From positions 1-42,325 of the IMG/VR virus record IMGVR_UViG_3300012039_000016: DNA of 42,325 bases. One strand, 5' to 3'. Numbering within the stretch: position 1 is the first letter of the stretch; every line of letters begins with the position of its first letter. Under the pieces are notes generated by a model. The model ran no database searches. It saw only the letters and a program-made list of their open reading frames with translations, and had not been told where the DNA came from. Below, in pieces: positions 9,008 to 23,551 of this stretch. The stretch comes from a virus. The position numbers and the translations under genes were made by a program.

Positions 9008-9678
9008 GCTATCTCAGTTGTGTAGTTAAGGTTAAGTGTCAGGCAGTCGTAAATTGCGTAGCCAATGGTGAATGTTACAGTCTGGTTATTAACATTGTTT
9101 ATAAATACGGTGATTGCCCCGAAGTCAGGGGTGAAGAATCCTTCTGGAAAGTTGGCTACTCTTATGGTGAAGGAGCCATCTGCTTCGGTAGTTACTGTTT
9201 GTGAGTACTTGTTCCCGTGAAGGTCGGTGAATATTAGCGTATAGTCGGTGGCCGCTTGTAGGTCTAAATCTATTACATAATTTCCGTAACAAGAAATGAG
9301 GTCGTAAGGATAACAACTTGCACAGCCAGTGGTTTCGGCTACGACCTCGTACCATGCTGCGCTGGCAAGGTAAATGGTGTCTGCCCCGTCTCGGTAGTAA
9401 ACATCAACCTGCTTACCTAAGAAAAGCGCAATGTCAATGTCACGGGTTATTTGAAGTATTGGGTTTTGATTCGATGCGATGAATCCGCTGCCCCCGGTGT
9501 TTATGCAGGTTAGCAGTTCGTTGAGGAATGTATTTAAGCTCATCCCTGTCCAGTCCTGTGAATTGGTGCATAACGTGTAGACTACCCCGTAAATATCAGT
9601 AGTCTCAATGTAAAGTGTCTGTACTCCTGTCGGTAAGGTTACGCCCGTAAAGTCTAATTCCGCAATGATTTGCGCCAT
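9004..9678 (-). CDS. Beta-rich structural protein after terminase
   Basis: A 224-residue protein encoded just downstream of the large terminase gene, where many phages have portal or head genes. The sequence is not portal-like. It is Thr/Asp/Ile-rich with alternating beta strands and pairs of Cys (CASCYPYDLISC near residues 118-129). It resembles an Ig-like or adhesin-type virion decoration domain. A 93-base gap separates it from the terminase stop. Confidence 0.65.
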   Translation of the reverse strand: MAQIIAELDFTGVTLPTGVQTLYIETTDIYGVVYTLCTNSQDWTGMSLNTFLNELLTCINTGGSGFIASNQNPILQITRDIDIALFLGKQVDVYYRDGADTIYLASAAWYEVVAETTGCASCYPYDLISCYGNYVIDLDLQAATDYTLIFTDLHGNKYSQTVTTEADGSFTIRVANFPEGFFTPDFGAITVFINNVNNQTVTFTIGYAIYDCLTLNLNYTTEIA

Positions 9679-9771
9679 AGGTGAAATTGGTAAGGTTTAC
9701 GCTATTTCCCGGTGGCGGGACAGAAAAGTGTATTTCCGAAAAAAACGGACGTTGCGAATATATAAACTATT

Positions 9772-10989
9772 TCAATACTTTAAAAAGGTTTTGTGAAAAG
9801 TATTTAACAAATATCTTACACAATCAAGTAGGTGTGTTTGGTGCTTGTCTTTTGTCTTGTCAATGTCGCCTTCGGAATCTACCTCGCAGTATATCATGTC
9901 TTCGATTAAGTATTCACAAGAGGGGTCAATATTTATTTCTCCGTTCTGCAAGATGGAGTTCATAAGTACTCTTGTATCTTGCGCTGCCGGATTAACTGCG
10001 GGTTGTTTCATCTGCGTGTCTACCAAATTTAATTCTTTTTTTATTACCGAGTAGTAGTTAATGTTTCCTCTCGTTAGTGCGCTGCGGTTGTGCCCGGTTG
10101 CGTCACCTGTGATTATAAACACTGAATCAGGATAGGCTACTTTTATTCTTTGACATAGCTCATAAATATCAGATTGTTCAAGCCTAAATTCTTTGATGAT
10201 GTTTACTTTTCCTGTTTCTGTTGACTGCGCGGCAATGCAGGTTATCGGGTCAACGTTAAAATCGAACGCTAACTGTAAATACTCCTGTGGATTGTACTCG
10301 CACTCTTTGATGTGCTTTTCTTTTGAGAATGCATAGGCAAAAGGATTAAGTGAAAGGTCAACGTCATCCGCCATGAACTCGCACCTAAATGTCATGCTGT
10401 CTAATTGATGCTTGACTGTTTCTATTTCCGCATGGTCTATAAATGGATTGTCGTAGGTGGTGAATTTAAACGCTGCCCAATCATCATACTTTGTGCAGGT
10501 TCGGAATAGCTCTTTAAAGTAGGTCTTGCCGAATTTAGGTGTAGATAAAAACCATGCCGTCCCTTTGTAGTCGGTTAGTGTTGCTCTGATGGTCTGCTCC
10601 CACGCCTCTTTAAACTTGTTTGCCTTCTCGCACTCGTCAACTATTACAAGGTGGTACTTTCTCCCCCTGCCTGAATCGGGGTTGTCCATTGACCAGATGT
10701 CAAGCGTTCCGTTGGTTATCGTTGTTATCTGTTTTACCTGTTCGTCCTTTGACCTGATGACTTCAAAAAGGGTGTTCTTGAGCATGTTCCATGTCTCGTA
10801 AACATCTTTGTAGGTCGGGGCGTAGTAGGCTACATATTTGCCGTCTAAAAGCGCATTTACTGCAAGGTCTGTGGCGATTTCAGTCTTCCCCCACCGTCTT
10901 CCGCATTTAAGAACGTTAAACCGCTTCTGCCCCTGTATTACTTTCTCCTGATTCGGATGGAGGGTTTTCAGGTTTATCGTTAGCTCCAC
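9772..10989 (-). CDS. terL: Terminase large subunit
   Basis: A 405-residue DNA-packaging motor with an N-terminal ATPase and a C-terminal nuclease. Visible motifs are Walker A CGRRWGKTE (29-37), Walker B LVIVDE (114-119), coupling motif FLSTP (147-151), and RNase H-like nuclease acids at D243 (AFDFN), D296 (TGDATGH) and D389 (HLLDC). All key residues are present, so it should be active. It is at the short end for large terminases. The start lies inside the small-subunit gene (74-base overlap); no later Met would keep the Walker A motif with a normal lead-in. Confidence 0.95.
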   Translation of the reverse strand: MELTINLKTLHPNQEKVIQGQKRFNVLKCGRRWGKTEIATDLAVNALLDGKYVAYYAPTYKDVYETWNMLKNTLFEVIRSKDEQVKQITTITNGTLDIWSMDNPDSGRGRKYHLVIVDECEKANKFKEAWEQTIRATLTDYKGTAWFLSTPKFGKTYFKELFRTCTKYDDWAAFKFTTYDNPFIDHAEIETVKHQLDSMTFRCEFMADDVDLSLNPFAYAFSKEKHIKECEYNPQEYLQLAFDFNVDPITCIAAQSTETGKVNIIKEFRLEQSDIYELCQRIKVAYPDSVFIITGDATGHNRSALTRGNINYYSVIKKELNLVDTQMKQPAVNPAAQDTRVLMNSILQNGEINIDPSCEYLIEDMIYCEVDSEGDIDKTKDKHQTHLLDCVRYLLNTFHKTFLKY

Positions 10990-11236
10990 GTATTATGCGA
11001 ATAATGGTGTCGTTCTCGGTTTCGTTGATGATGTGTTCGGATGGTTTGCCGTATTTATAACCAAAGTAAAGCTGAGCGTGTTGAATGTTTCCTTTAAGGG
11101 CTTCTTTTTTAACTGCTTTCCATATTTCCTGTTCTTCCTCTTTAGTAATACACTGCTCTAACGTTTTAGCAAGGCCAAGTATTTCAGCCTTTGTTCGCCT
11201 ACCTGCTCCGGGTCTTGCTCCGCCTGTTCCTGCCAT
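10916..11236 (-). CDS. Terminase small subunit (probable)
   Basis: A 106-residue protein beginning with GGARPGAGRR, a basic Gly/Arg/Pro start common in small terminase and related phage DNA-binding proteins, followed by a helical middle (residues 18-65) that could recognise the packaging site. The C-terminus is acidic and flexible, as expected for docking on the large subunit. It lies just upstream of the large subunit and overlaps it by 74 bases. The assignment rests on this pairing and the N-terminal motif. Confidence 0.8.
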   Translation of the reverse strand: MAGTGGARPGAGRRTKAEILGLAKTLEQCITKEEEQEIWKAVKKEALKGNIQHAQLYFGYKYGKPSEHIINETENDTIIRIIRGANDKPENPPSESGESNTGAEAV

Positions 11237-11278
11237 TGATTTTTATTGAAGATTCAATATCAATTAGTTACAAATCAA

Positions 11279-11593
11279 CTATTCGCATTTCATTACTTTA
11301 CTTTCGATTGTCCAGTGAAGTCCCCCGTCAACTGAGGTTTTTTTGTAGTAAACCTGGCCTTGTTCGATTTCGTTGTATTCTCCGTTGCAGTACTTTGTCT
11401 GGCTTTCGATGTAGGTTTGGGTGGGCTGTCCTGATGCTGCCGGGTCAATGGTTGTGGTCAGGGTGCAGGTTTTGCAGATTGGCTCGTTTTCTTCTTTTGA
11501 GCAGCCCATTAAAAAACAGATGAAGCAAATCAGAAGTATCTGGGTTATTAGCCGGATTTTCTTTTCAACTGATTCTCCGTAGATTCTGCTCAT
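11279..11593 (-). CDS. Phage-encoded lipoprotein
   Basis: A 104-residue protein with a hydrophobic signal (about residues 15-30) ending in a lipobox LMGC (28-31), so Cys31 should be lipidated and the rest exported. The mature part has four further Cys and a Thr-rich stretch. It abuts the stop of the preceding gene and precedes the small terminase. Phage lipoproteins in other systems often block superinfection at the envelope; that role is inferred here. Confidence 0.75.
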   Translation of the reverse strand: MSRIYGESVEKKIRLITQILLICFICFLMGCSKEENEPICKTCTLTTTIDPAASGQPTQTYIESQTKYCNGEYNEIEQGQVYYKKTSVDGGLHWTIESKVMKCE

Positions 11594-11773
11594 TTAATTT
11601 AGGTAAACTTCAATTTCGTAAATTACCAAAGGGTGCGTTTTTATTTTCTTGCTTTTGTTTATTAACATAAACATTTGACGCACTCCTTCAATCCTGCCTT
11701 TTTCTACTGGCGGTGGCTGAAAGTTTGCCGGGTCGTACCCACTAAAATTTATTCCTTCTAAATCTTCAAACAT
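11594..11773 (-). CDS. 59-aa protein, first gene after an internal promoter
   Basis: A short gene ending directly before the lipoprotein start. A TATATTTG box (11786-11779) lies 5 bases before its ATG, so it may head a nearly leaderless internal transcript. The product has a Pro-rich first third and a basic helical second half (MFMLINKSKKIKTH). No family recognised. Confidence 0.6.
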   Translation of the reverse strand: MFEDLEGINFSGYDPANFQPPPVEKGRIEGVRQMFMLINKSKKIKTHPLVIYEIEVYLN

Positions 11774-11778
11774 AATTG

Positions 11779-11786
11779 CAAATATA
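11779..11786 (-). promoter_or_regulatory. Possible internal late promoter (-7 box)
   Basis: TATATTTG on the minus strand matches the Bacteroidetes -7 consensus TAnnTTTG exactly and sits 5 bases upstream of the ATG at 11773. A good -33 TTTG at the usual distance was not seen, so it would be weak or activator-dependent. It could raise expression of the terminase and tail genes. Confidence 0.4.
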
Positions 11787-11788
11787 GT

Positions 11789-11986
11789 TTATTTTTTAAT
11801 CCGTTCAGCAGTTAGCCCTTTTATTTCTTTACCCTCTTTATCAACATTTAACTTGTTCTTGGATTTGAAAGCGAAGTCGCCTCTTAGGTAGTTTTTTATT
11901 TCTTTCTGCTGCTGCTTTCTTATTGCTTTGTATTCTTCAAAGCTCATTCCTTCGGGGCGGGCGGTTAGGATAGGTGTTAGTTCCAT
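11789..11986 (-). CDS. Small charged helical protein
   Basis: A 65-residue Lys/Glu/Gln-rich protein, mostly helical (FEEYKAIRKQQQKEIKNYL), with a basic end. Its ATG touches the stop of the DUF551-like gene at 11986. The size and charge fit a scaffold or regulator, but nothing specific is recognised. Confidence 0.6.
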   Translation of the reverse strand: MELTPILTARPEGMSFEEYKAIRKQQQKEIKNYLRGDFAFKSKNKLNVDKEGKEIKGLTAERIKK

Positions 11987-12306
11987 TATTGATTTATTTC
12001 TAACATATTAAAGTTAGTCCATGTTTTTAAGTGTCCTAAAACATCTTTCGGTAATGGCGGTAGCGGCATCCAATATAAAACATCTTCCGCAAAATATAGT
12101 TTTTCTTCGGCTTCAAATCTTCTGTTTTCTGTGATAAATATATTTGAACGATGGGTATGTTCTGTTTCATAGTTTTCCATGAATATCGCCCGACATCTCC
12201 CGGTGTTAGATTTTAAATAAATATTTTTGTATTCTAATATTATTAAAACCTCTTGTAGATTTTTTGGGTTTTGTTCTTTAGTTGAAATCCATCCGTTTGT
12301 ATTCAT
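11986..12306 (-). CDS. DUF551-like phage protein
   Basis: A 106-residue protein that starts with GWISTKEQNP, continues with a VLIILEY strand and contains WMPLPPLP (near residues 79-86). This order (WIS..E..P, then W-M-P-L-P-x-x-P) is the hallmark of DUF551, a small domain common in phages and of unknown biochemical role. It overlaps the preceding glycosyltransferase stop by 4 bases. Confidence 0.75.
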   Translation of the reverse strand: MNTNGWISTKEQNPKNLQEVLIILEYKNIYLKSNTGRCRAIFMENYETEHTHRSNIFITENRRFEAEEKLYFAEDVLYWMPLPPLPKDVLGHLKTWTNFNMLEINQ

Positions 12307-12866
12307 AGTGTCGCTCGTGTTATTTTTTTATCGAAAATATATGTGTGAAGTATCTTGTCAATGTGGTGTTCAGTTTCGGCTATCTTCCATGCCTGCTCGC
12401 AGAAGATGGTGTCTTCGCCAAAATTACTGATTCCAAAATCAAGATGCTTGAATTTTTCTGTTTTAAATGCACAGCAGGAGAATGGTTTTCTTTTCGTAAT
12501 TCCATTGGCGTTAAATTCTTCGTTCTCGTTTTGCAGTGAGAAGTTGATAGTTGATTCGCCCCACTCTTCAATAATAGCGGTTTGGTCGAAGGTGATTATG
12601 TCTACATCTGATTCTGCGGCTTTTAATAGCTCTTCAATATAATCCTCGCTGCACTTATCATCATCGTCTAAGAATGCAAAATACTTCCCGTTCGCTAACC
12701 TCATGGCTCCCGTTCGCTTTTCTCCGATGGTTCTTTTTTTGTTGTCCATAAAAACAATTATTTCAGCTTCAGGGTAGTTGTAAGATTGTGTTAATAACTT
12801 GTCAACAAGTTTTTGAAGCGTAGTAAAGCGTTCTGGGATTGAGCAGATTAGTATTGAGAGCGTCAT
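12303..12866 (-). CDS. Family 2-type glycosyltransferase
   Basis: A 187-residue GT-A fold enzyme that should transfer a sugar from a nucleotide sugar. It opens with LSILICSIPER, typical of GT2 nucleotide binding, has IGEKR at 47-51 and the metal-binding acidic cluster FLDDDD (65-70). It is short for GT2 enzymes and has no membrane segment, so it is a minimal catalytic domain. It shares the IGxKR and DDDD arrangement with the enzyme at 17760-18308, suggesting paralogy. The acceptor is unknown: host polysaccharide, virion protein or modified DNA are all possible. Confidence 0.85.
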   Translation of the reverse strand: MTLSILICSIPERFTTLQKLVDKLLTQSYNYPEAEIIVFMDNKKRTIGEKRTGAMRLANGKYFAFLDDDDKCSEDYIEELLKAAESDVDIITFDQTAIIEEWGESTINFSLQNENEEFNANGITKRKPFSCCAFKTEKFKHLDFGISNFGEDTIFCEQAWKIAETEHHIDKILHTYIFDKKITRATL

Positions 12867-13012
12867 TTTATTTTAAATTGAATGCAGTAATAAAGCCACC
12901 CAATATTAAGATAACAGAAATATTTATCATAATAAAAAGATATGAACGGTAAAAGATTTAGGTTTTTCCAATCCCCGTCTTCTCTTGGCTTGTATAAATT
13001 ATATACCTTCAT
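12863..13012 (-). CDS. 49-aa aromatic protein, probably membrane-associated
   Basis: A short gene joined by ATGA overlaps to the methyltransferase gene upstream and the glycosyltransferase gene downstream. The last 30 residues are strongly hydrophobic and aromatic (FISFYYDKYFCYLNIGWLYY), fitting a peripheral or single-pass membrane peptide. It might tether the sugar enzymes, but that is a guess. Confidence 0.55.
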   Translation of the reverse strand: MKVYNLYKPREDGDWKNLNLLPFISFYYDKYFCYLNIGWLYYCIQFKIK

Positions 13013-13569
13013 TTTATTACTACTAAAACATCATCATAACGGTTTTTGATGTGCCTGCGGTCTATTGTCTCTATTGTTTTTTCTGAATCTATATATTTAT
13101 AAAACGGAACCACTTCTTGTATATCTTCAATAATATAGATACCATCTTTATTTAAATAAGGTTTGAAGTTTCGGTAAAGTAGCATTTGTTGGTCAAAGCT
13201 GTGGTTCGCATCCTCAATTATCACATCAAATTTAATGCCTAAAAAAAACTTTTCTATCGTTGCCTGGTCTTCTGCATCTCCGATAAATATTTTGTGCGTT
13301 CCTTCGGCTATTATCGGGCGTAAATCGTACCGGCCTCCTATTGGGGTTTCGTCACAATCTATCCCGTAAACATTCGCTTGTTCTGAAAAGTATCGCTCCC
13401 ACATTCTCATTGATGCCCCTTCAAGCAGCCCAATTTCTAAAATGTTTTTCGCGGTTGCCCTGTAGGGGCGCAGGATTTCTTCATACACTTCAATATAGCT
13501 GTGAATTGACCCTTTGTCAGATTCGTGTCCCTCGGCTTTAAGCTGGTTGTAGATTTCCTGTAAAGTCAT
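13009..13569 (-). CDS. SAM-dependent methyltransferase (Methyltransf_24-like)
   Basis: A 186-residue class I methyltransferase. It has the lead-in DKGSIHSYIEVYEEIL, motif I LEIGLLEGAS (44-53) for SAM binding, an acidic ribose-contacting strand ending VYGID (67-71) and the later motif IIEDANHSF (117-125) with the final strand IYIIEDI. This combination is found in sugar- or antibiotic-type methyltransferases. Lying between glycosyltransferase-like genes, it probably methylates the same glycan. Confidence 0.85.
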   Translation of the reverse strand: MTLQEIYNQLKAEGHESDKGSIHSYIEVYEEILRPYRATAKNILEIGLLEGASMRMWERYFSEQANVYGIDCDETPIGGRYDLRPIIAEGTHKIFIGDAEDQATIEKFFLGIKFDVIIEDANHSFDQQMLLYRNFKPYLNKDGIYIIEDIQEVVPFYKYIDSEKTIETIDRRHIKNRYDDVLVVIK

Positions 13570-13862
13570 TTATTAAAATGATTTTTATTGACATAAAAAC
13601 ATCGGTGTGGCCCTCGTGCATCATAAGCGCTTCCGTAAAAACAATCCCAACCCGCTTGTTTAAATTCTTTAATTACATCATCCATTATACCTTCAAAGGC
13701 ATAGGCTGGAGTTATTATGATGGCATGATAGTTTTCATTTTTAACAAATATTTCTTCATGCCAATCTTGCTTTAATAATTTTTCATTAAAGTATTCTATT
13801 GGAGTGTTCAGTCTGGGGTTGCTATTAATCTCGACTGGTTTTATAGGATGTATTTGGTTCAT
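13566..13862 (-). CDS. Small unknown protein in sugar island
   Basis: A 98-residue soluble protein coupled by ATGA overlaps to both neighbours. It has a strand-helix core (YHAIIITPAY, MDDVIKEFKQAGWDCFYG) and a conserved-looking RGPHRCFYV segment. The fold may be a small alpha/beta sandwich. No family recognised. Confidence 0.6.
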   Translation of the reverse strand: MNQIHPIKPVEINSNPRLNTPIEYFNEKLLKQDWHEEIFVKNENYHAIIITPAYAFEGIMDDVIKEFKQAGWDCFYGSAYDARGPHRCFYVNKNHFNK

Positions 13863-14698
13863 ATCGGATAAAGTTTACCTTCTATTTCTACTGTTTGGGT
13901 GTTTGCCGGGAAGCCTAAGTTTTCCGGGTGCCCGATTGATACTATTCTTCCTTTGCTCAGCCAGCTTGCAACTGCCCCTGTTGAGCTTCGGTTCTTGATG
14001 TAGTGGGCGCATTTTGAGAATAGCCATACCATTAACACAGGTTGCAGCCCTCTTTCATATCCTGATACATTTGAGAATCTTTCAGGGTTATCTTTCGCTC
14101 CGTACGGGGCTTGGATAAATTCTTCAACTACAAACGCCTGCGGATATTTATTTAACAGCGGGTCAAGTATTCCCTGCTCTTCGGCTGTACACATTATTCG
14201 CATATCATCCGTTAATACTTCATCAATGAATGGGAAGTAGGTTTCTATCGATATTCGCGGCCTGCCGTCAAGATAAATATCTGTGCCCCTCCATGTTATT
14301 CCGATTGTTTTTGTAAAGTCAATTTTGTATTTGTCAACAATCGCCCGCCCTCTTTGATTCGTTGCTTCGTTAAATTTTAAATGCCTTTGATAGTATTCTT
14401 TTATAACGCTTAGCGGCTGCGCCATAAAGCCTACCGGAGTGGGGTCTGCCCAGTTTTCCCATGTCCATGTTTCTTCCCGTTTTTTATTTCCGAATGGCTG
14501 CTCAAAAAACCAGTCATAGGCGTTAGGAATTTTCTGAAATTTAGCATCATCGTTGTAAGATTGTACCGATAATCCTTTCGGCCAGTTGATGTATGCCGTG
14601 TGGCCGGTTTGCTCGGCTGCCCACATTTGCCAATAGTGGCAGTACAGCCACGTGGTGAGGGTGCTGTGTATATCGTTTTTCTCTAAGAATATATTCAT
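13859..14698 (-). CDS. Fucosyltransferase-like glycosyltransferase
   Basis: A 279-residue protein with the segment IGITWRGTD (132-140), which resembles the donor-binding arginine motif of GDP-fucose-type GT-B transferases such as the NodZ and O-fucosyltransferase groups. A later STGAVASWL helix is also in the style of these enzymes. The first third is Trp-rich and probably binds the acceptor. The family call is moderate; a generic phage glycosyltransferase is the alternative. Confidence 0.6.
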   Translation of the reverse strand: MNIFLEKNDIHSTLTTWLYCHYWQMWAAEQTGHTAYINWPKGLSVQSYNDDAKFQKIPNAYDWFFEQPFGNKKREETWTWENWADPTPVGFMAQPLSVIKEYYQRHLKFNEATNQRGRAIVDKYKIDFTKTIGITWRGTDIYLDGRPRISIETYFPFIDEVLTDDMRIMCTAEEQGILDPLLNKYPQAFVVEEFIQAPYGAKDNPERFSNVSGYERGLQPVLMVWLFSKCAHYIKNRSSTGAVASWLSKGRIVSIGHPENLGFPANTQTVEIEGKLYPI

Positions 14699-14979
14699 TT
14701 TTCTTTAAACACTTTTACTGGTTCATCATGATTTCCTCCCATTGGTTCACATTTATATCTTAAATTTATTCTTTTACAATTTATGCAGTATTGAATGTAT
14801 TGCCATCTTTCAACTGAAAATGGTGAAACACGATAAACAAAATATTTTGCTGCCCCGCAATTCCAGCACTCCTCTAATGAATCGTTTTGGTTGAGACTTT
14901 TTTCTTTTTCTAATTCAAAGCATGTCTCTAATTCCTGTTCAGAGATTTCTTTTGATAATAAAAGTTCGCGTATTTTCAT
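14695..14979 (-). CDS. Zinc-ribbon protein in sugar island
   Basis: A 94-residue protein with two CxxC pairs, CWNC (38-41) and CINC (near 70-73), spaced about 28 residues apart, as in a zinc ribbon. The N-terminal third is an acidic helix. ATGA overlaps link it to both neighbours. It could bind nucleic acid or act as a structural partner. Confidence 0.65.
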   Translation of the reverse strand: MKIRELLLSKEISEQELETCFELEKEKSLNQNDSLEECWNCGAAKYFVYRVSPFSVERWQYIQYCINCKRINLRYKCEPMGGNHDEPVKVFKEK

Positions 14980-15665
14980 ATCGGTGTAAGTATTTCGCCA
15001 TCGTGCTTAATTTCCGGATAAACAAATCCGGTTTCTTGATTGATTGTTTTCCAGCTACCGTGAAAACCGAATGGGCTGCTGTGGTGATAGTGTGGATTCG
15101 GATTGCCTCCCTGACCGAAGTGTGACGCTGTTTTCAGGTCTGCAAACTTAAATCCTTCCGCCTCTAACTGATGACGGTGGGTGATTGCTATCTCGCCATC
15201 CTCGTACATCCTTATGTTTTTTTGAAGGTTGTGCGCCTGTTCGTTCGTGCCATCCCACTGGGGATATTTTTCGGAAACAGATTGCATGATTGATTTGCTG
15301 CGAAACGAAAATCCACCTACTCCCATAACGTCATACTGATTAAACAGTGCTCCAATGTAGTCGTACTGCTCCCATTTTTTGTTCCATGCCTGCGGGTTGA
15401 GTATCCACCCGTCTCGTTGAACTATCAGTATGTGTTTGGTGTCTACATACTCGTGAATTTTTTTTAGCATGAATACCGAGTAATGAATAAGTGTTTTTAC
15501 TTCCTTTATTTCTACTTTATGAGGATAGTCGGTGGAGAAGTGTGTAAGAAGTTTTATGTCTGCGAAGTCACAGAGTGCCTTGCACCGTTCTACTACTTTT
15601 ATGGCGCGGTCAATGTTGAGGCAGTCAACAATTAACAGGGTGGTGGTGTTTAAATTTGGTTTCAT
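14976..15665 (-). CDS. DUF5672-like glycosyltransferase-type protein
   Basis: A 229-residue protein. The start at 15665 is chosen because it gives an ATGA overlap with the upstream stop; a longer frame up to 15743 would overlap by 82 bases. Motifs QRDGWILNPQAW (83-94) and YDYIGA (101-106) match the pattern of DUF5672, a family linked to GT-A-type glycosyltransferases. The Asp in QRDG is the likely metal ligand. A His-rich stretch (NPHYHHSSPFGFHG) follows near residue 195. Confidence 0.75.
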   Translation of the reverse strand: MKPNLNTTTLLIVDCLNIDRAIKVVERCKALCDFADIKLLTHFSTDYPHKVEIKEVKTLIHYSVFMLKKIHEYVDTKHILIVQRDGWILNPQAWNKKWEQYDYIGALFNQYDVMGVGGFSFRSKSIMQSVSEKYPQWDGTNEQAHNLQKNIRMYEDGEIAITHRHQLEAEGFKFADLKTASHFGQGGNPNPHYHHSSPFGFHGSWKTINQETGFVYPEIKHDGEILTPI

Positions 15666-16402
15666 CTTTTTTGTTTCCATCCGAGCGACCTCTTGCGGTT
15701 TATTTCTTTGATGCGGTCGCGGTAGTAGTCCCGGTAGTCCCACGCCATTCCCTGTGACAAAAATATTGCTTCTTTGTTGAGCGGTGTCGCTTCGCTAACG
15801 TAGTGAATCCATCCCTCCGGGTCAGTGTAGTTGAATCCGTGTTTGTGCATGATTAGGCTGAGGATGGTTTGGTCGTGGCGGGTTCCAAATATTCGCGGGT
15901 CGTCTCCTAATTGGTTGTCTTCGTTCTTCCAGCTTCCTTTGAAAAGATGAATGTTCTCAAAGTACTCTTTAAAGATTGTTTGCCCTGCCGGGTGGTCGAA
16001 GTTTAGCCCTACAATACATGCCATCGCGTGAGGTATGGAGTACGCCTCTTCGCGGGTGTAGCCGAACGCTTTTAGCTGCTCATCACTTGACCAGTTACCA
16101 GTGCTCCATCCGTTTCTAAGAACAAAGTAGCCGTCTTGTTTTATCTTGTCAAATATCGGGGTAGGGTTGTGCTGTGCCCACACTGCGGCATCGCACCACA
16201 CTACCATCTTGTGCAGTCCCTCGTCTTTAATATCTTTAAAGGCGTAGGGCTTAAACGCGTAAGGTATTTGGTTATGTTCGGGGCATCCCTTTGGATAGGT
16301 GTTTTCCCATACCCGGTGGCGCAGTCCGTACTTGGAGATGGACTCAACCAGCCTCTTTTGCCCTTTTGGATGCCAAAACTTTACCGCTACGTTTATGAAC
16401 AT
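15662..16402 (-). CDS. Glycosyltransferase-like protein
   Basis: A 246-residue soluble protein. The segment MVVWCDAAVW (66-75) sits where GT-A enzymes carry their DxD metal motif, although only one Asp is present. The later HDQTILSLIMHKHG (near 190-203) resembles the acceptor or H-D-Q motif of capsule-type glycosyltransferases. It overlaps the neighbouring genes by 4 and 10 bases. Activity is plausible but not certain because of the reduced DxD. Confidence 0.65.
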   Translation of the reverse strand: MFINVAVKFWHPKGQKRLVESISKYGLRHRVWENTYPKGCPEHNQIPYAFKPYAFKDIKDEGLHKMVVWCDAAVWAQHNPTPIFDKIKQDGYFVLRNGWSTGNWSSDEQLKAFGYTREEAYSIPHAMACIVGLNFDHPAGQTIFKEYFENIHLFKGSWKNEDNQLGDDPRIFGTRHDQTILSLIMHKHGFNYTDPEGWIHYVSEATPLNKEAIFLSQGMAWDYRDYYRDRIKEINRKRSLGWKQKR

Positions 16403-16977
16403 TTTCCTATTAGTAGATTTTCATCATTAAACAAAATCTCTTTATATCCCGCAGCTAAGTTAAGTATTTCTTCTTTCCTTCCATCATGCTCGATGCACCA
16501 TAGTTTACAGTTTTGAAACTCGCTGAACATCTTTAAGAATAGCTCTGCGCTGGTTGCTTCGGTGTCTATGTTAATGAAGTCGAAAATGTCTCCGTACTTT
16601 TCTTTTAGTGCAGCAAAGTGAATGCCGTAAACTTGGGTAGGCTTGAACGGCACATGACTCCACTTTGCTACATGGTCGGTGTTGGTAGTTGATAGAAAAT
16701 CCCCGTTGGATTCGTAGAATGTCTGCCATCCTGCGGTAATTCCTACCACCGCATTTACTATCTCGGTATTTAGTCCTTCCATGTTTTTTATCAGTGCCGG
16801 GATAAGATGTGCCGAGGGCTCTACCATCACGCCTTTCCATCCATTTAAGAGTAGCTGGTAGGAGTTGGACATTACCTTGCCATCCGCACTACCGATATCC
16901 AGCAGCGTTCCTGTGCTTATGTTTTGTTCCTGAAAGTAGTTCAAGATGGAGTGTTCTTCGGTTTTTTGCGAGTACAT
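16393..16977 (-). CDS. FkbM-family methyltransferase
   Basis: A 194-residue class I methyltransferase. It has SAM-binding motif I LLDIGSADG (25-33), the following acidic strand VMVEPSAHL (50-58) and INIDTEATSAELF (near 136-148), the arrangement of the FkbM family, which often O-methylates sugars. It is shorter than typical FkbM proteins, lacking an N-terminal extension. Together with the Methyltransf_24-like enzyme it suggests a methylated glycan product. Confidence 0.85.
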   Translation of the reverse strand: MYSQKTEEHSILNYFQEQNISTGTLLDIGSADGKVMSNSYQLLLNGWKGVMVEPSAHLIPALIKNMEGLNTEIVNAVVGITAGWQTFYESNGDFLSTTNTDHVAKWSHVPFKPTQVYGIHFAALKEKYGDIFDFINIDTEATSAELFLKMFSEFQNCKLWCIEHDGRKEEILNLAAGYKEILFNDENLLIGKCS

Positions 16978-16984
16978 CTTTCTA

Positions 16985-17347
16985 TTAATTATTGCGGTGT
17001 TTCATGTAGGCGTATGGCCGGGCATCATAGCCCTGTATGCCATATTTCTTTTTTAGTGATTCATATTTTATAAACTCTTCTCTTGTCATAAAATCTAATA
17101 TGGGAAAAAATAATTCAGTTAATTCCTTGCCTAATATTTTTCCCGATTTTTCCTTAACTTTACTAATCTCTTTATATGGTGTTGTAGATTTTCCATCAAT
17201 TAATTTTTCTCCAAACATTACTTCTTTTACCGTTACTCCAAGTACTTTCATGTTCAAGTCTGATGGCCTGCCAATTAGATAATAGAATCTATAAAACTCT
17301 TTTTCTAAATTCCAAATTTCCTGACACTGCTCTTCCGTCCACTTCAT
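16985..17347 (-). CDS. Small helical protein, unknown
   Basis: A 120-residue charged helical protein, rich in Lys and Glu, with FYRFYYLIGRPSDLN near residues 17-31. No signal or membrane segment. It overlaps the membrane-protein gene upstream by 4 bases. No family recognised. Confidence 0.6.
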   Translation of the reverse strand: MKWTEEQCQEIWNLEKEFYRFYYLIGRPSDLNMKVLGVTVKEVMFGEKLIDGKSTTPYKEISKVKEKSGKILGKELTELFFPILDFMTREEFIKYESLKKKYGIQGYDARPYAYMKHRNN

Positions 17348-17763
17348 TTGTTTTTATTGTCTTTCATTGATTCATACATTATTCGGGCAATCTTTTCAAT
17401 CGTCCGGTTTAATCCTCTTGGGGTCAAATATATTTTCTCTTGTGAAGTAACATAGGTTCTTATAAGGTCTTCTGTTTTTCTATCGCTTTCGGCTTTTGTT
17501 CTATTATTCTCTACCTGAAATAAAACATCCTTTGCAAGTTTTAAGGCTTCAATTTGCTTTATGTTATTATATTTTCTAATGTAGTTGGCTAATCTTATTA
17601 TGCTTTTTATATCAGATGTTTCAAACAAATAGTGGTCTTCTATTGTTTCTGCTTGTGCTGGCGTCATGGCACTTTTCTCTTTTAAATGTTTTCTATAACT
17701 AACGGCTAAATAGGTTAAATATACAATCAGAATTAATATAAATATTGCTATATTATAATTCAT
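17344..17763 (-). CDS. Membrane-anchored helical protein
   Basis: A 139-residue protein with one N-terminal membrane span (residues 4-22, IAIFILILIVYLTYLAV) followed by a basic patch, so the rest should be cytoplasmic. The body is helical and charged. It is coupled to the glycosyltransferase gene upstream and may bring sugar enzymes to the membrane, but this is inferred from context only. Confidence 0.65.
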   Translation of the reverse strand: MNYNIAIFILILIVYLTYLAVSYRKHLKEKSAMTPAQAETIEDHYLFETSDIKSIIRLANYIRKYNNIKQIEALKLAKDVLFQVENNRTKAESDRKTEDLIRTYVTSQEKIYLTPRGLNRTIEKIARIMYESMKDNKNK

Positions 17764-18308
17764 TTATTTCTACGATACTGATAAAAATACATTGGCTGGT
17801 CTATAAAATACTCGGTTTTCAGCAGCCCTGATTCTGCCATTCTTTTTGCAAAGTCGGCATCTTCTCCAAAGGATGTTTCGGGGAATTTTACCTGTCTTGC
17901 CAGCTCAACTTTCATCGGGTTGAGGTGGTTGGGTGGGCGGAAGTAGATGCCTTTTTGCTCGGTGTATTTTAGTCCAAGTTTATGAATGAATGTCTCCGGC
18001 TTTTTGCCCTCTGAGGTTATGATTCCTTTAAAGGTTACTACGTCCACCCCTTTGTTTATTCCTTCGTGCACTCGTTCTACGTAGTCTGAGCTTACTAAGT
18101 CATCATCGTCTATGAATGCACAGTATTCGGTCTCACATTTGTCAAGCAAGTGGTTTCTCTTGTGGCCGATGGTTTCTTCGCCCCTGTCTTCAAGGATGAA
18201 TATCTTAGTATCTATCTGCTTGCACTGCCCACCGATAACGTCTATCAGCCGGTCCAGAAAGTGCTTGCGGCTTGTCAGGGTTGGGATGAGGATGGTTAGC
18301 TTACACAA
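17760..18308 (-). CDS. Family 2-type glycosyltransferase
   Basis: A 182-residue GT-A enzyme with LTILIPTLTSR at the N-terminus, IGHKRN (47-52) and the metal-binding cluster FIDDDD (65-70), followed by FGEDADFAKRM (near 148-158) supplying the catalytic acid region. It is closely similar in plan to the enzyme at 12303-12866, including a late FGED motif in both, so the two are probably paralogues with different acceptors. It overlaps the next upstream gene by 8 bases. Confidence 0.85.
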   Translation of the reverse strand: MCKLTILIPTLTSRKHFLDRLIDVIGGQCKQIDTKIFILEDRGEETIGHKRNHLLDKCETEYCAFIDDDDLVSSDYVERVHEGINKGVDVVTFKGIITSEGKKPETFIHKLGLKYTEQKGIYFRPPNHLNPMKVELARQVKFPETSFGEDADFAKRMAESGLLKTEYFIDQPMYFYQYRRNK

Positions 18309-18984
18309 AATCTTTTGCCTTTCTTTGCTCGTAAATCTTTTTTCCTAAATCCCATGCTGATTGGGAGTTTTCGCGGTTGTAGGTGTGGTCTTTCGGGTTT
18401 TTGCCGTTGATGAAGTGCCGGTGTTCAAACTTTAAATCAGAGTAAATCAGCCAGCCGTTTTTCTTACAAACATCGTGCAGCTCGTTGTCGGCAAACATGG
18501 AGAAGTAGCGCGGGTTGTAGATGTGTCCGAGTTTCTCGTAAATGCCTCTGCTTATTATTGGTAGTGTCATGCAGCCGGACTGGTTGCCGTTGATGCAGTC
18601 GTCTATCATTATTGCGAAGTTTTCTGCCGGTTCGTTAAGGTGCGTTGTAACTAATCCGCTTAATCTGCCTGAAGTGTTTTTTATTTCAACATCCCAATCT
18701 TTCGGGCATCCAAAATCATCGCTAACCACTATTAAACAATCTCCTGTTGATAACTTGGCTGCGTTGTTTACCGCGTCTATCATGCTGCGATTTTCATTGA
18801 TTAAAAGTTTTATGCCGGTTTCTTTGAACTGGCTTTTGTAGCAGTCTATCTGCGCATCGTCTTTGTCAATGCTTAGTATGTACTCGTACTGGTTCTGGTC
18901 GGAGGCATTGCCCATCCATTCTACAAAGGCTTTGTATGCCATTTGGCAGCGTTCGCGGCTCGGATGTATCAAGGTGTAGCGCAT
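18301..18984 (-). CDS. GT-A-type glycosyltransferase
   Basis: A 227-residue protein starting MRYTLIHPSRER, with the strand CLIVVSDDF (83-91) holding the acidic metal motif DD (89-90). Before it lies NRSMIDAVNNAAKLSTGD, the usual donor-binding loop of GT2-like enzymes. The MFADNELHDVCKKNGW segment (near 173-188) fits the catalytic acid region. It is the first glycosyltransferase in the late operon, separated from the leading gene by one base. Confidence 0.8.
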   Translation of the reverse strand: MRYTLIHPSRERCQMAYKAFVEWMGNASDQNQYEYILSIDKDDAQIDCYKSQFKETGIKLLINENRSMIDAVNNAAKLSTGDCLIVVSDDFGCPKDWDVEIKNTSGRLSGLVTTHLNEPAENFAIMIDDCINGNQSGCMTLPIISRGIYEKLGHIYNPRYFSMFADNELHDVCKKNGWLIYSDLKFEHRHFINGKNPKDHTYNRENSQSAWDLGKKIYEQRKAKDFV

Positions 18985-18985
18985 T

Positions 18986-19192
18986 TTACTGAACTCTTAC
19001 AAGTATTGTGTGCCCGTTTTCGGTGTAGGTGCGGAATTTCCAGTTGAGTTTGCGGGTTTGCGCCTGCCGCTTTGCGCAGTTTAAGGCTACGCTTGAGGTA
19101 ATTGTATCAAGTACTCTCCTTTCGCCCAACTCCATATTGTAAAAATGGTGTATGGGTTTCCGGCCTCTATTTTCCGGGATGACTATTTCCAT
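18986..19192 (-). CDS. First gene of the late operon, small basic protein
   Basis: A 68-residue basic protein headed by a near-leaderless late promoter box (19207-19200). Residues 30-50 (TSSVALNCAKRQAQTRKLNWK) could form a helix-turn-helix, followed by beta strands (FRTYTENGHTILVRV). It may be a small DNA-binding regulator of the operon. The fold is inferred, not matched to a known family. Confidence 0.55.
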   Translation of the reverse strand: MEIVIPENRGRKPIHHFYNMELGERRVLDTITSSVALNCAKRQAQTRKLNWKFRTYTENGHTILVRVQ

Positions 19193-19199
19193 GATGGCG

Positions 19200-19207
19200 C
19201 AAAGATA
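19200..19207 (-). promoter_or_regulatory. Late-operon promoter -7 box
   Basis: TATCTTTG on the minus strand matches TAnnTTTG and ends 7 bases before the ATG at 19192, so the message would be nearly leaderless. The -33 position (19227-19230, TCAT) is poor. This fits a late promoter that needs a phage-coded activator. Confidence 0.5.
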
Positions 19208-19305
19208 TAAATAAATATTTAATTAAATGATAAAAAAATAAATAAAAATAATTGCCTTGATTTTCAAACACTTGCTATATTATTGCAATATTTCTTTTAT
19301 TATTA

Positions 19306-19336
19306 CTTGTACATATTAAAATAAGCATTATGTTTG
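19306..19336 (+). promoter_or_regulatory. Bacteroidetes-type promoter (CTTG-N19-TATGTTTG)
   Basis: The -33 CTTG at 19306-19309 and -7 TATGTTTG at 19329-19336 are separated by exactly 19 bases. It points rightward to the small gene at 19398, leaving a leader of about 55 bases. The whole stretch 19193-19397 between the two divergent genes is very AT-rich and holds only these control sites. Confidence 0.75.
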
Positions 19337-19397
19337 CACCGTATTTATAAACAATCATTCACTAATTAATCAAACAATTTAAAAACGTATCAATAAA

Positions 19398-19592
19398 ATG
19401 AACACAAATTTTGAAAACATTTCCGCGCTTCGTAAAGCTGCATCAGGTAAACAGTTATTTGTTAAATGCGGGCAGTTGCCTGTATTGATTAAAAAGTCAG
19501 CAATTAACCGCGCTTTACTTGGGCAAAAGTTTTACGCCTCTGCCTTTGCTACTGACCGCGCACTGTATATTAATTCTATTCAATTATATTAA
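19398..19592 (+). CDS. Small basic protein, unknown
   Basis: A 64-residue protein behind a good promoter, running opposite to the late operon. It has an Ala/Lys-rich helix first (ISALRKAASGKQLFVKCG) and a second helix-strand half. The size, charge and divergent placement suggest a regulator, but no helix-turn-helix is clear. Confidence 0.55.
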   Translation: MNTNFENISALRKAASGKQLFVKCGQLPVLIKKSAINRALLGQKFYASAFATDRALYINSIQLY

Positions 19593-19658
19593 TATGAAAG
19601 TTGAAATTAACACTTTCTCTATGAATAGGGGGATATCACCTTTAAACACTTAGAAAAA

Positions 19659-19847
19659 ATGAAGAATGAAAAAGAGAAAAACGACAAAAAAATTGAAAAT
19701 CCCGAATTAAAAAAACAATGTGTAACTATACATGGGGATTCGGGGCATTATTATTTATCCAAAGGGATAAGCCATATTAACGGTATTCCTGTTATACAAA
19801 CGACATCGCCAGACGAAGTTCCCCCCTTGGAACAGATGGAGGATTAA
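19659..19847 (+). CDS. Small Lys-rich protein, unknown
   Basis: A 62-residue protein with a strongly charged N-terminal third (EKEKNDKKIENPELKK) and an acidic C-terminus. Its last 56 bases overlap the end of the ClpP-like gene on the other strand. It is the second possible gene of this short rightward unit. Support is limited to the open frame and spacing. Confidence 0.4.
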   Translation: MKNEKEKNDKKIENPELKKQCVTIHGDSGHYYLSKGISHINGIPVIQTTSPDEVPPLEQMED

Positions 19848-20999: not shown

Positions 21000-22331
21000 T
21001 TAATTATTAATAAGGTCACGCATTGGTTCAGCTAATTTCTTATAAATAGGATTTTTATCATTCGTTACATCTATAAAAGTTGTAAATCCACCTTCCGATT
21101 TATCGCCAAAATAAAAACGAGTTTTGTTGCTTACTAATGTATTTGCCTTACTGAACTTGGAAAGGGCTTGAATCAGATATGGCGAATGTGAACTAATTAC
21201 AACAGGTATTCCACTTGCGCATAAACTCACAATGATTTTAGCGTATTCAATTTCCCATTGTGGGTGCAAGTGAACCTCTGGTTCATCTATAATTAATAGC
21301 GAGTTTTGATTAACGTATGTAGGATTTAGTAATAATTGGAGTAATCCTAATGATTTTACTCCAGTAGCTATGTTAAAAGCCCGGACAATAGCTCCATTGT
21401 TTTTTATAAAAACTATTCCACCCTCATCACTTTTAAATTTCATTTCTCCAGAAATAACAGATTTAATCATTTTAAATATTTCCGCAAAGACATCACTACT
21501 AACAGGAGGTGAAATTTTAACTTTTTGAGAAATGTCAGAATAGTGCAATGGTAAATCCCCTCGCTGATTTCCCGTTGGGGAAAATGCTAAACTATTAGTA
21601 ATAAATTCTGCCAACTGTACAATCGTTGGCGTTTCAATTATTGTTGCATCTTTTAAATAGAACGGATTGTCAACCTTAAATGATGAAGTTAAGTTTTTTT
21701 CTACTACAAGTTTAAGAATAGACGTTACCCCTTCTTCAATATTAATACTAAGTTCATTGTCTGTTAAAAGTGAATTAATTTGACTTTGAAATATTCTTTG
21801 AATGATGTTTCTGTCAAAATATGTTTTATATTTTGCTTCATCCGTTGGAATATCCTCTAAAGTCTGAATAATTTTTTTTTCGTATATGTTGATATTTAAA
21901 ATTGCATCTTCAAACCTCTTTTTCGTGGAATCAGGTGCGTTTACTTTGGTTGATTCTAAATCCTCCTTTACTTTGACAATATATTCCCTAACCTCGTTTG
22001 CAAGTTCGGCATTAACTGATTGCACTCTGCCAATGTAAAGATTTACTAATTTTTGAACTAAAATATTCGTATTAAATTTTTGAGCCTTATCTTGAGTGAA
22101 TGGAATAACAGACCTATGGGACGAATTAATATTATTTAAATTGTTCGTTGACTGGGAATACTTCTCGATATTCATAAAAGTATCGGCATTATTTATTGTT
22201 TTAATAATCGAATAAATACCTTTGCTTATAAAAGATTTCCCTGTATCATTGGTTCCGGTTATAACAGTTAGTCCATTAACTTCAATAGAAGCCTCTTTAA
22301 CAATGCCGAAATTTTTAAAAATGAATTTCAT
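21000..22331 (-). CDS. OLD/SMC-like AAA ATPase (accessory cassette)
   Basis: A 443-residue ABC-type ATPase. It has FKNFGIVKEASIEVNGLTVI (residues 5-24) typical of the RecF/OLD/AAA_15-21 lineage, Walker A GTNDTGKS (26-33), Walker B LLIIDEPEVHLHP (345-357) with the catalytic Glu, and a switch motif VISSHSPYL. The middle (about 90-330) is helical and probably a coiled-coil arm. There is no TOPRIM nuclease domain, so activity would depend on a partner, likely the adjoining 20444-20998 gene. ATPases of this kind are the sensors of several anti-phage systems, so this could be a phage-carried defence against competitors. It has its own promoter. Confidence 0.85.
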   Translation of the reverse strand: MKFIFKNFGIVKEASIEVNGLTVITGTNDTGKSFISKGIYSIIKTINNADTFMNIEKYSQSTNNLNNINSSHRSVIPFTQDKAQKFNTNILVQKLVNLYIGRVQSVNAELANEVREYIVKVKEDLESTKVNAPDSTKKRFEDAILNINIYEKKIIQTLEDIPTDEAKYKTYFDRNIIQRIFQSQINSLLTDNELSINIEEGVTSILKLVVEKNLTSSFKVDNPFYLKDATIIETPTIVQLAEFITNSLAFSPTGNQRGDLPLHYSDISQKVKISPPVSSDVFAEIFKMIKSVISGEMKFKSDEGGIVFIKNNGAIVRAFNIATGVKSLGLLQLLLNPTYVNQNSLLIIDEPEVHLHPQWEIEYAKIIVSLCASGIPVVISSHSPYLIQALSKFSKANTLVSNKTRFYFGDKSEGGFTTFIDVTNDKNPIYKKLAEPMRDLINN

Positions 22332-22678: not shown

Positions 22679-23551
22679 ATGGAAAACACAAAATTTACTT
22701 ACAAAGAATTTAAAAGAATCTATCCGACTGATACAGCATGTTTGCATAAAATATTCATGCTTCGATATGGACATTTAACCCATTGTCCTAAATGCAAAGA
22801 ACCCGCAGCATGGCGCAGAATTACAACAAGACGTTGTTATCAATGCAGACATTGTTACGAGCAATTCTACCCAACAGCTGGAACAGTATTTCACAATGTA
22901 CGCAGACCTTTAACCGAATACTTTTACATTATGTTTTTATTTACAACCACTCGTCATGGTGTGGCAGCAAAAGAAATTGAAAGGCAATTAGGTTTGCATT
23001 ATAAAACCGCTTTCAGAATGTGTCATGTAATCCGCAGGTTAATGGATAAAATAGGAACGGATAAATTAAAAGGATTTGTTGAGGCGGATGAAACCTATTT
23101 TACGCATGGTAAAAGGGATGGCGAAAGGGGTAAAACACCCGATACACAAACACCCGTATTTGGAATGATAGAAAGAATGGGAAATGTAAAAGCGTTTGCA
23201 TTGGATGAAGTAAAAAAGCGGGTAATCTTTCCGTTAATTGAACAGCACATTGACAAGTTAGCAAAATTAAGCACGGATGAATTTGCGCTTTATACTAATG
23301 TTGAAAAGGAGTTAGGCATTAAGCATGGAGCAGTAAAACACGCAATGGGACAATATAGAGCGGGCGACATAACCACAAATACTATTGAGGGGTTTTTCGG
23401 GCAATTAAAAAGAATGGTTTACGGTGCGCATATTCACATCAGCAAAAAGTATTTACAGGTATATGTTTCTGAATGTGTATTCAGATACAACAATAGAAAA
23501 AATCAAAATGGAATGTTTGAGGCTATTCTAAAGAATCTCCCTTTAGCTTAA
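22679..23551 (+). CDS. IS1595 (ISXO2-like) transposase
   Basis: A 290-residue transposase. The N-terminal zinc ribbon has CPKC (36-39) and CRHC (56-59). A helix-turn-helix region follows near 93-120. The catalytic ISXO2 domain shows EADETY with D137, STDEF with D200 and NTIEGFFGQLK beginning at N234, matching the DDN-type active site of the family. The full length suggests it is intact. No terminal inverted repeats were seen beside it, and its end overlaps the opposite-strand gene by 29 bases, so it may not be a mobile IS but a captured gene, or the ends have decayed. Confidence 0.9.
   Translation: MENTKFTYKEFKRIYPTDTACLHKIFMLRYGHLTHCPKCKEPAAWRRITTRRCYQCRHCYEQFYPTAGTVFHNVRRPLTEYFYIMFLFTTTRHGVAAKEIERQLGLHYKTAFRMCHVIRRLMDKIGTDKLKGFVEADETYFTHGKRDGERGKTPDTQTPVFGMIERMGNVKAFALDEVKKRVIFPLIEQHIDKLAKLSTDEFALYTNVEKELGIKHGAVKHAMGQYRAGDITTNTIEGFFGQLKRMVYGAHIHISKKYLQVYVSECVFRYNNRKNQNGMFEAILKNLPLA

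What the first reader, a model, noticed from the sequence alone, without database searches (positions are those of the whole stretch)
12303..18984. Glycan island of several glycosyltransferases and two methyltransferases in a phage late operon
At least five GT-like proteins (12303, 13859, 15662, 17760, 18301), a DUF5672-type protein (14976) and two class I methyltransferases (13009, 16393) lie in the late operon upstream of the terminase genes, mixed with small membrane and zinc-ribbon proteins. This is enough for a multi-step, methylated glycan. The acceptor could be host surface glycan, virion protein or modified DNA. Two GT2 enzymes share IGxKR and DDDD motifs, suggesting gene duplication.
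Basis: partly seen in the sequence, partly recalled or inferred. Interest (0 to 1): 0.6.

Follow-up and report, generated by a model that had tools for sequence, protein, structure and literature searches.

The report
Phage cassette building a methylated glycan
A soil phage, probably infecting Bacteroidota, carries a compact set of sugar-transferring and sugar-methylating genes that recurs in phages with otherwise unrelated genomes, most likely to coat its own particles with a methylated, fucose-type sugar chain.

Summary
12303-18984 (minus strand) carries three GT2-type glycosyltransferases, a DUF5672 protein, a fucosyltransferase-fold enzyme, a MycE-like sugar O-methyltransferase and an FkbM-like methyltransferase. 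15662 stays unassigned (its structure model was poor). The genes overlap by 4 bp at most junctions and run unterminated into the terminase genes. A six-gene core (GT2c, GT2b, DUF5672, FucT, MT24, FkbM), usually in this order, recurs in nine other viral contigs and partly in two more, over about six backbones that share almost nothing else. It is therefore a horizontally exchanged unit. The FucT (49-77% identical between groups) is far better conserved than the terminase (25-39%). The model of 13859 matches NodZ, FUT8, FUT1 and POFUT2 fucosyltransferases. MT24 keeps the MycE active-site residues D, H, E, D in all 11 copies. GT2a and GT2b are homologous to Mycobacterium phage Che8 gp108 (in the GT cluster of a phage whose virions are glycosylated) and LittleE gp15 (next to the major capsid gene). 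Best reading: cytoplasmic glycosylation of virion proteins (about 0.6). Host surface or DNA glycosylation are weaker rivals. GT2a and GT2b are ancient separate lineages, not a local duplication. New variant of a known kind; acceptor unproven.

The parts
18301..18984 (-). GT2c: GT2-like (GT-A) glycosyltransferase, phrog_14945 family; most divergent core enzyme, proposed acceptor-side or variable step
   Evidence: PHROG E 2.9e-20, Pfam sub-threshold, core member in relatives, median inter-group identity 28%
17760..18308 (-). GT2b: short GT2 glycosyltransferase (TTG start), phrog_14775; same family as LittleE gp15 and the N-terminal domain of Che8 gp108
16393..16977 (-). FkbM-type SAM-dependent methyltransferase
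   Evidence: TIGR01444 E 3.4e-8, slightly below its cut-off; core member
15662..16402 (-). g15662: unassigned enzyme-like protein, accessory; homologues in the L006, L009 and jumbo-phage (L128) cassettes
   Evidence: no family above threshold, model pLDDT 44, homologues
14976..15665 (-). DUF5672 protein (putative GT-A transferase); real start 15665
   Evidence: Pfam 62.6 bits; start fixed by the L006 orthologue and ATGA overlap
13859..14698 (-). FucT: NodZ/FUT8/POFUT-fold fucosyltransferase with invariant WRGTD motif; most conserved core enzyme
   Evidence: Foldseek PDB E 4.6e-6 to NodZ, all top hits fucosyltransferases; motif invariant in 12 homologues
13009..13569 (-). MT24: MycE/TylE-like metal-dependent sugar O-methyltransferase
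   Evidence: phmmer E 1.1e-6 to 8ia9 and 1.6e-5 to 3ssm, D120/H123/E148/D149 aligned to the MycE active site, invariant in 11 homologues
12863..13012 (-). s49: 49-aa ORF, lineage-specific, 96% identical to L006
12303..12866 (-). GT2a: short GT2 glycosyltransferase, accessory of the cassette found in few of the contigs, ancient paralogue of GT2b
   Evidence: Pfam 49.5 bits, tree, distribution
19200..19207 (-). Possible Bacteroidota-type -7 element TATCTTTG upstream of the first gene of the operon (18986-19192)
   Evidence: sequence; the motif is not enriched over chance in the window, so only suggestive
9772..10989 (-). Large terminase, downstream on the same strand as the cassette
   Evidence: phrog_2 E 3e-36; no minus-strand terminator-like site in 9500-19800

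Best explanation
The island is a phage-encoded, cytoplasmic virion-glycosylation cassette. Soluble GT-A enzymes (GT2c, GT2b, GT2a, DUF5672) would build a short oligosaccharide sugar by sugar from host nucleotide sugars onto a capsid or tail protein. The NodZ/FUT8-fold enzyme (13859) would add a fucose-like residue from host GDP-fucose. The MycE-like enzyme (13009) and the FkbM enzyme (16393) would O-methylate sugar hydroxyls to cap or tailor the chain. The glycan would shield the particle or alter its surface. Shown: gene content, conservation, linkage, exchange between backbones, and fold or sequence family for most enzymes. Inferred: fucose as donor sugar, order of steps, protein acceptor, function of the glycan.
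For: Tight co-directional operon running into TerS and TerL. The same module in diverged relative L006 at 60-78% aa identity, dN/dS 0.06-0.16 where computable. Six-gene core linked in nine other viral contigs and partly in two more, in backbones several of which share 0-1 other ORFs with the window. Next to TerL, portal and protease genes in L014; beside TerL in L015-L017 and L131; beside tail and baseplate genes in L018 and L127; 4.5 kb from a baseplate gene in the jumbo phage. GT2a/GT2b are homologous to Che8 gp108 (E 5e-25), the first gene of the Che8 gp108-110 GT cluster, and to LittleE gp15 (E 9e-35), which directly follows the major capsid gene; Che8 virions are glycosylated and gp110 is required (PMC12363180; see also PMC11600133). 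Che8 gp108 also fuses a GT to a methyltransferase domain. FucT fold; MycE-type active site. No core enzyme has a transmembrane segment by hydropathy.
Against: No biochemical or proteomic data, and no acceptor protein identified. The unrelated backbones share no common structural protein that could be one common acceptor. The Che8 enzyme named as essential (gp110) is not the homologous one. An integrase in the 55.7-kb copy (G001) and in G011 leaves lysogenic conversion possible. In L125 (G010) no virion gene was recognised beside the cassette. The FucT model is only moderately confident (mean pLDDT 60) and was built from 7 sequences. Structural genes fill much of any tailed-phage genome, so location alone is weak evidence.
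Confidence: 0.6

Rival explanations
1. The enzymes modify host surface glycan (lipopolysaccharide, capsule or lipid-linked O-glycan precursors) during infection or lysogeny to block superinfection by changing receptors.
For: An integrase in the 55.7-kb copy of this phage and in L127's contig makes lysogeny possible. A similar cassette in unrelated phages could reflect a shared host glycan. A pyruvyltransferase and a STELLO-type GT join some cassettes.
Against: No flippase, polymerase, ligase or membrane GT seen among the island's family hits; all core enzymes soluble; the cassette lies in the late strand with the terminase; closest relatives with a known setting belong to virion-glycosylating phages.
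Confidence: 0.2
2. The enzymes glycosylate a hydroxylated base in phage DNA (hypermodification).
For: Virus-encoded GTs that hypermodify DNA with diverse glycans are known (Pyle 2024, cited in PMC12619734). L018's contig has a TET/JBP gene; a C5-cytosine MTase occurs in G001 and G006; a ThyA homologue occurs in L125's contig.
Against: No cassette contig has been shown to have both TET and a C5-MTase. No ThyA in G000-G009 or G011-G013 and no TET outside G007 (the TET search had no positive control of its own). Relatives of the MycE-type and NodZ-type enzymes act on sugars.
Confidence: 0.1
3. A collection of unrelated morons or auxiliary metabolic genes that happen to lie together and act on small molecules or host metabolism.
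For: Small unconserved ORFs are interspersed, and single GTs of this kind occur scattered in other phages.
Against: Linked six-gene core over unrelated backbones and purifying selection.
Confidence: 0.07

Closest known systems
Virion glycosylation cluster of Mycobacterium phage Che8 (gp108-gp110) and the GT/kinase/MT/GT genes after the capsid gene of LittleE
   Same: Homologous short GT2 enzyme (about 32-39% identity), GTs combined with methyltransferase functions, several GTs in tandem; in LittleE next to the major capsid gene.
   Different: No homologue there of the DUF5672, FucT, MT24 or FkbM enzymes, and only marginal similarity to GT2c. Actinobacterial hosts; GT and MT fused in Che8 gp108; here six or more separate genes.
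Chlorovirus PBCV-1 self-encoded capsid glycosylation (A064R, A111/114R)
   Same: Virus-encoded, host-organelle-independent GTs plus fucosyl- and methyltransferase steps building a fucose-containing, O-methylated capsid glycan in the cytoplasm (PMC7826918).
   Different: Eukaryotic giant virus, multidomain proteins, N-linked glycan; homology to this cassette not tested.
NodZ / FUT8 / AtFUT1 / POFUT2 fucosyltransferase fold
   Same: Fold match E 5e-6 to 2e-3 and a WRGTD motif resembling the H-x-R-x-x-D-type motif of these enzymes (motif comparison from general knowledge).
   Different: No significant sequence match to any solved chain; about 11-18% identity over aligned residues.
MycE / TylE sugar O-methyltransferases
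   Same: Sequence homology E 1e-6 and conserved Asp, His, Glu, Asp.
   Different: Lacks the loop with Tyr208 of MycE, and at 186 aa is less than half the length of those enzymes; acceptor unknown.

Membership tests
Phage virion-glycosylation clusters (Che8/LittleE type) | Encodes a GT homologous to one from such a cluster | tested here: met
   Che8 gp108 to GT2b E 5e-25; LittleE gp15 to GT2b E 9e-35
Phage virion-glycosylation clusters (Che8/LittleE type) | Homologue of the GT reported as required (Che8 gp110) | tested here: not met
   no hit of gp110 to any cassette family
Phage virion-glycosylation clusters (Che8/LittleE type) | Glycans found on capsid or tail proteins | not testable with these tools
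   needs mass spectrometry of virions
GDP-fucose fucosyltransferases (NodZ/FUT8/POFUT superfamily) | Fold of that superfamily | tested here: met
   significant PDB fold hits all fucosyltransferases, best E 4.6e-6; model pLDDT 60 on average, core blocks 75-94
GDP-fucose fucosyltransferases (NodZ/FUT8/POFUT superfamily) | Arg-containing GDP-binding motif | tested here: inconclusive
   WRGTD invariant in 12 homologues; its equivalence to the GDP-binding motif is by analogy and was not checked on a superposition
GDP-fucose fucosyltransferases (NodZ/FUT8/POFUT superfamily) | Uses GDP-fucose | not testable with these tools
   no GDP-mannose dehydratase in the 11 cassette contigs searched, so the donor would come from the host
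MycE-type sugar O-methyltransferase | Asp275/Asp304 metal ligands and His278 | tested here: met
   aligned D120, D149, H123 (and E148), invariant in 11 homologues
MycE-type sugar O-methyltransferase | Tyr208 of the active site | tested here: not met
   the loop that carries it is absent in the alignment
FkbM methyltransferase | TIGR01444 above its curated cut-off | tested here: inconclusive
   34.0 bits against 37.7, E 3.4e-8
TET/5hmC DNA hypermodification clusters | TET plus C5-MTase, or a base hydroxymethylase, in the same phage | tested here: not met
   no ThyA or TET in the window or its 55.7-kb copy; TET and C5-MTase never found in one contig; contigs may be incomplete and G009-G013 were not searched for C5-MTase
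Gtr-type serotype conversion | Membrane GT and flippase (GtrA/GtrB) | tested here: not met
   core enzymes lack TM segments; no such family among the island's hits

The most novel reading that the evidence does not exclude
A standardised glycan kit is passed between unrelated tailed phages, including a jumbo phage, of one host group. A near-constant inner part (DUF5672, NodZ-type FucT, MycE-type methyltransferase) makes a methylated fucose-type unit, while the divergent GT2c, GT2b and FkbM and swapped-in accessory genes (STELLO GT, pyruvyltransferase, Stealth) vary the attachment or the outer sugars. This would give phages a shared but diversifying capsid sugar coat, a prokaryotic parallel to chlorovirus capsid glycosylation.
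Probability: 0.35. Interest if true: 0.72.

Novelty: new variant of a known kind. Interest (0 to 1): 0.5.

Why it matters
Virion glycosylation by phage enzymes is established in only a few mycobacteriophages that I could find. A linked, horizontally exchanged glycan cassette in probable Bacteroidota phages would extend it to another host phylum. It supplies a candidate phage fucosyltransferase family and phage sugar O-methyltransferases with a defined active site. It also makes a question testable: what do phages gain from sugar coats where no animal immune system is involved?

Tried and rejected
GT2a/GT2b as a local duplication: rejected by the tree. 15662 as a proven GT: model too poor, no significant fold hit, no profile match to the other cassette families. 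Small ORFs 13566, 14695, 16985 and s49 as cassette parts: no homologues outside the L006 lineage among the loci held. Near-DNA matches in the phage collection: none. Tblastn of 15662, 13859 and 16393 against 50,697 phage records: none. Bacterial homologues of the FucT: none by pattern scan of the genome collection and none in 395 genomes of the phylum of G014; the same tool and query do find the relatives in viral records. Nucleotide-sugar synthesis: no GDP-mannose dehydratase. Bacteroidota promoter motif: not enriched in the window, so used only as a hint. The main Freeman 2023 paper was not held, so its findings are cited through papers that report them.
Full report
What is there. The window is a 42,325-base IMG/VR virus record. 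A 55,662-base copy, 99.99% identical over the island, exists (IMGVR_UViG_3300011430_000013, called G001 here). On the minus strand a chain of genes runs from 19192 to 9772. It starts with a 68-aa gene (18986-19192) behind a TATCTTTG sequence that resembles a Bacteroidota -7 element, although that motif is not enriched in the window. It continues through the island into the small and large terminase genes. Most neighbouring genes in the island overlap by four bases, and no minus-strand terminator-like site was found in 9500-19800. The host is probably Bacteroidota: the portal protein in G001 matches only Polaribacter phages in the phage collection.

Enzymes. GT2a (12303) and GT2b (17760) are short GT2 enzymes over the Pfam cut-off. 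GT2c (18301) is below it, but PHROGs assigns it as a glycosyltransferase at 3e-20. DUF5672 (14976) starts at 15665, not 15743, as the ATGA overlap and the L006 orthologue show. MT24 (13009) is homologous to demethylmacrocin O-methyltransferase and MycE (E 1e-6 and 2e-5). Its D120, H123, E148 and D149 align with the MycE active site, whose Asp275, Asp304 and His278 are described in PMC9275233, and all four are invariant in 11 homologues. The loop with MycE Tyr208 is missing. 16393 is FkbM-like. 13859 has no sequence family, but its model (mean pLDDT 60, core blocks 75-94) matches NodZ, FUT8, Arabidopsis FUT1 and POFUT2; every significant PDB hit is a fucosyltransferase. Viral fold matches include cyanophage proteins annotated as fucosyltransferases. 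15662 could not be assigned.

Relatives. A diverged relative, L006, carries all eight enzymes at 60-78% identity, with dN/dS 0.06-0.16 where synonymous sites were not saturated. The core GT2c, GT2b, DUF5672, FucT, MT24, FkbM is also in L015, L016, L017, L018, L127 and L131 in the same order; in L122 and L125 with some rearrangement; and partly in L014 (three of the six; terminase genes follow) and in a 238-kb jumbo phage, L128 (FkbM, 15662-like, DUF5672, FucT, MT24). Outside the cassette the window shares no ORF with the backbones of L014, L125, L127 and L128 that were read, and one each with L018 and L122; the one shared with L018 is the IS1595-type transposase. The cassette is thus a horizontally exchanged unit. 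Its median identity between groups falls from FucT 63%, MT24 51%, DUF5672 48% and GT2b 40% to FkbM 35% and GT2c 28%, against 30% for the terminase. FucT and MT24 distances correlate best (rho 0.70 over 55 pairs). My inference is a constant inner reaction pair with variable outer or acceptor-side steps. Accessory genes differ between phages: a STELLO-type GT (L015-L017, L122, L125), an extra methyltransferase (L015-L017, L122), a pyruvyltransferase (L122), a Stealth-like protein (L014, below its cut-off).

Where it sits. The cassette is beside the terminase in the window, L006, L015-L017 and L131. In L014 it is directly upstream of terminase, portal, head morphogenesis and protease genes. In L018 and L127 it is antiparallel to a tail and baseplate operon. 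In L128 it is 4.5 kb from a baseplate wedge gene. In L122 the nearest candidate is a weak tail-fibre match, and in L125 none was recognised.

Link to known systems. GT2a and GT2b are homologous to the N-terminal domain of Mycobacterium phage Che8 gp108 (E 5e-25), whose C-terminal domain is a methyltransferase, and to LittleE gp15 (E 9e-35), directly after the major capsid gene. In a tree of 49 GTs all cassette GT2b proteins form one supported group near LittleE gp15, while GT2a lies on the other side of a 99/97 branch. Che8 virions are glycosylated and Che8 gp110 is one of the essential GTs (PMC12363180, reporting Freeman 2023, which is not held here). In cluster O phages GTs lie beside an O-methyltransferase gene and are said to modify capsid and tail tube proteins (PMC11600133). 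Che8 gp110 has no homologue in the cassette, gp109 only marginal similarity to GT2c, and none of the other cassette enzymes is in the Che8 or LittleE clusters. By hypothesis the cassette works like those clusters, but it is a distinct variant. Chlorovirus PBCV-1 offers an analogy: a virus-encoded cytoplasmic pathway with fucosyl- and methyltransferases acting on the capsid protein (PMC7826918).

Rivals. DNA glycosylation needs a hydroxylated base. No thymidylate-synthase-type enzyme was found except in L125's contig, TET only in L018's contig, and C5-methyltransferases only in G001 and G006 among the nine records searched. No contig was found to combine TET and a C5-methyltransferase. Host surface modification is not excluded, since G001 and L127's contig carry integrases. 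But all core enzymes are soluble by hydropathy and no lipid-carrier machinery was seen among the island's hits.

Limits. No expression, glycan or acceptor data. Contigs may be fragments. Gene neighbourhood is weak evidence because structural genes fill much of any tailed phage genome. The FucT donor and the order of steps are inferences.

Noticed in passing
window 12863-13012 (-): A 49-aa ORF is 96% identical to its L006 copy (dN/dS 0.018) while the flanking enzymes are 73-76% identical; no homologue in the other loci held. Aromatic-rich; function unknown.
   Followed up: partly
window 22679-23551 (+): IS1595-type transposase inside a low-GC block (about 0.31-0.33 at 19-26 kb), next to an AAA/OLD-like ATPase at 21000-22331.
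   Followed up: no
window 13859-14698: The FucT gene of L006 carries a 24-aa insertion after residue 73 relative to the window; this segment varies in length among homologues.
   Followed up: no
L117 3706-5297: TET/JBP-type dioxygenase adjacent to an FkbM methyltransferase in the L018 contig, without a C5-methyltransferase; substrate unclear.
   Followed up: partly
L154 95-646: RNA ligase 1-like (RLIG1, PF17720) match just upstream of the cassette in L014's contig.
   Followed up: no
L111-L114 (68-kb contig G006): The contig appears to hold two sets of several genes, including two large terminase ORFs; possibly a chimeric or concatenated assembly.
   Followed up: no
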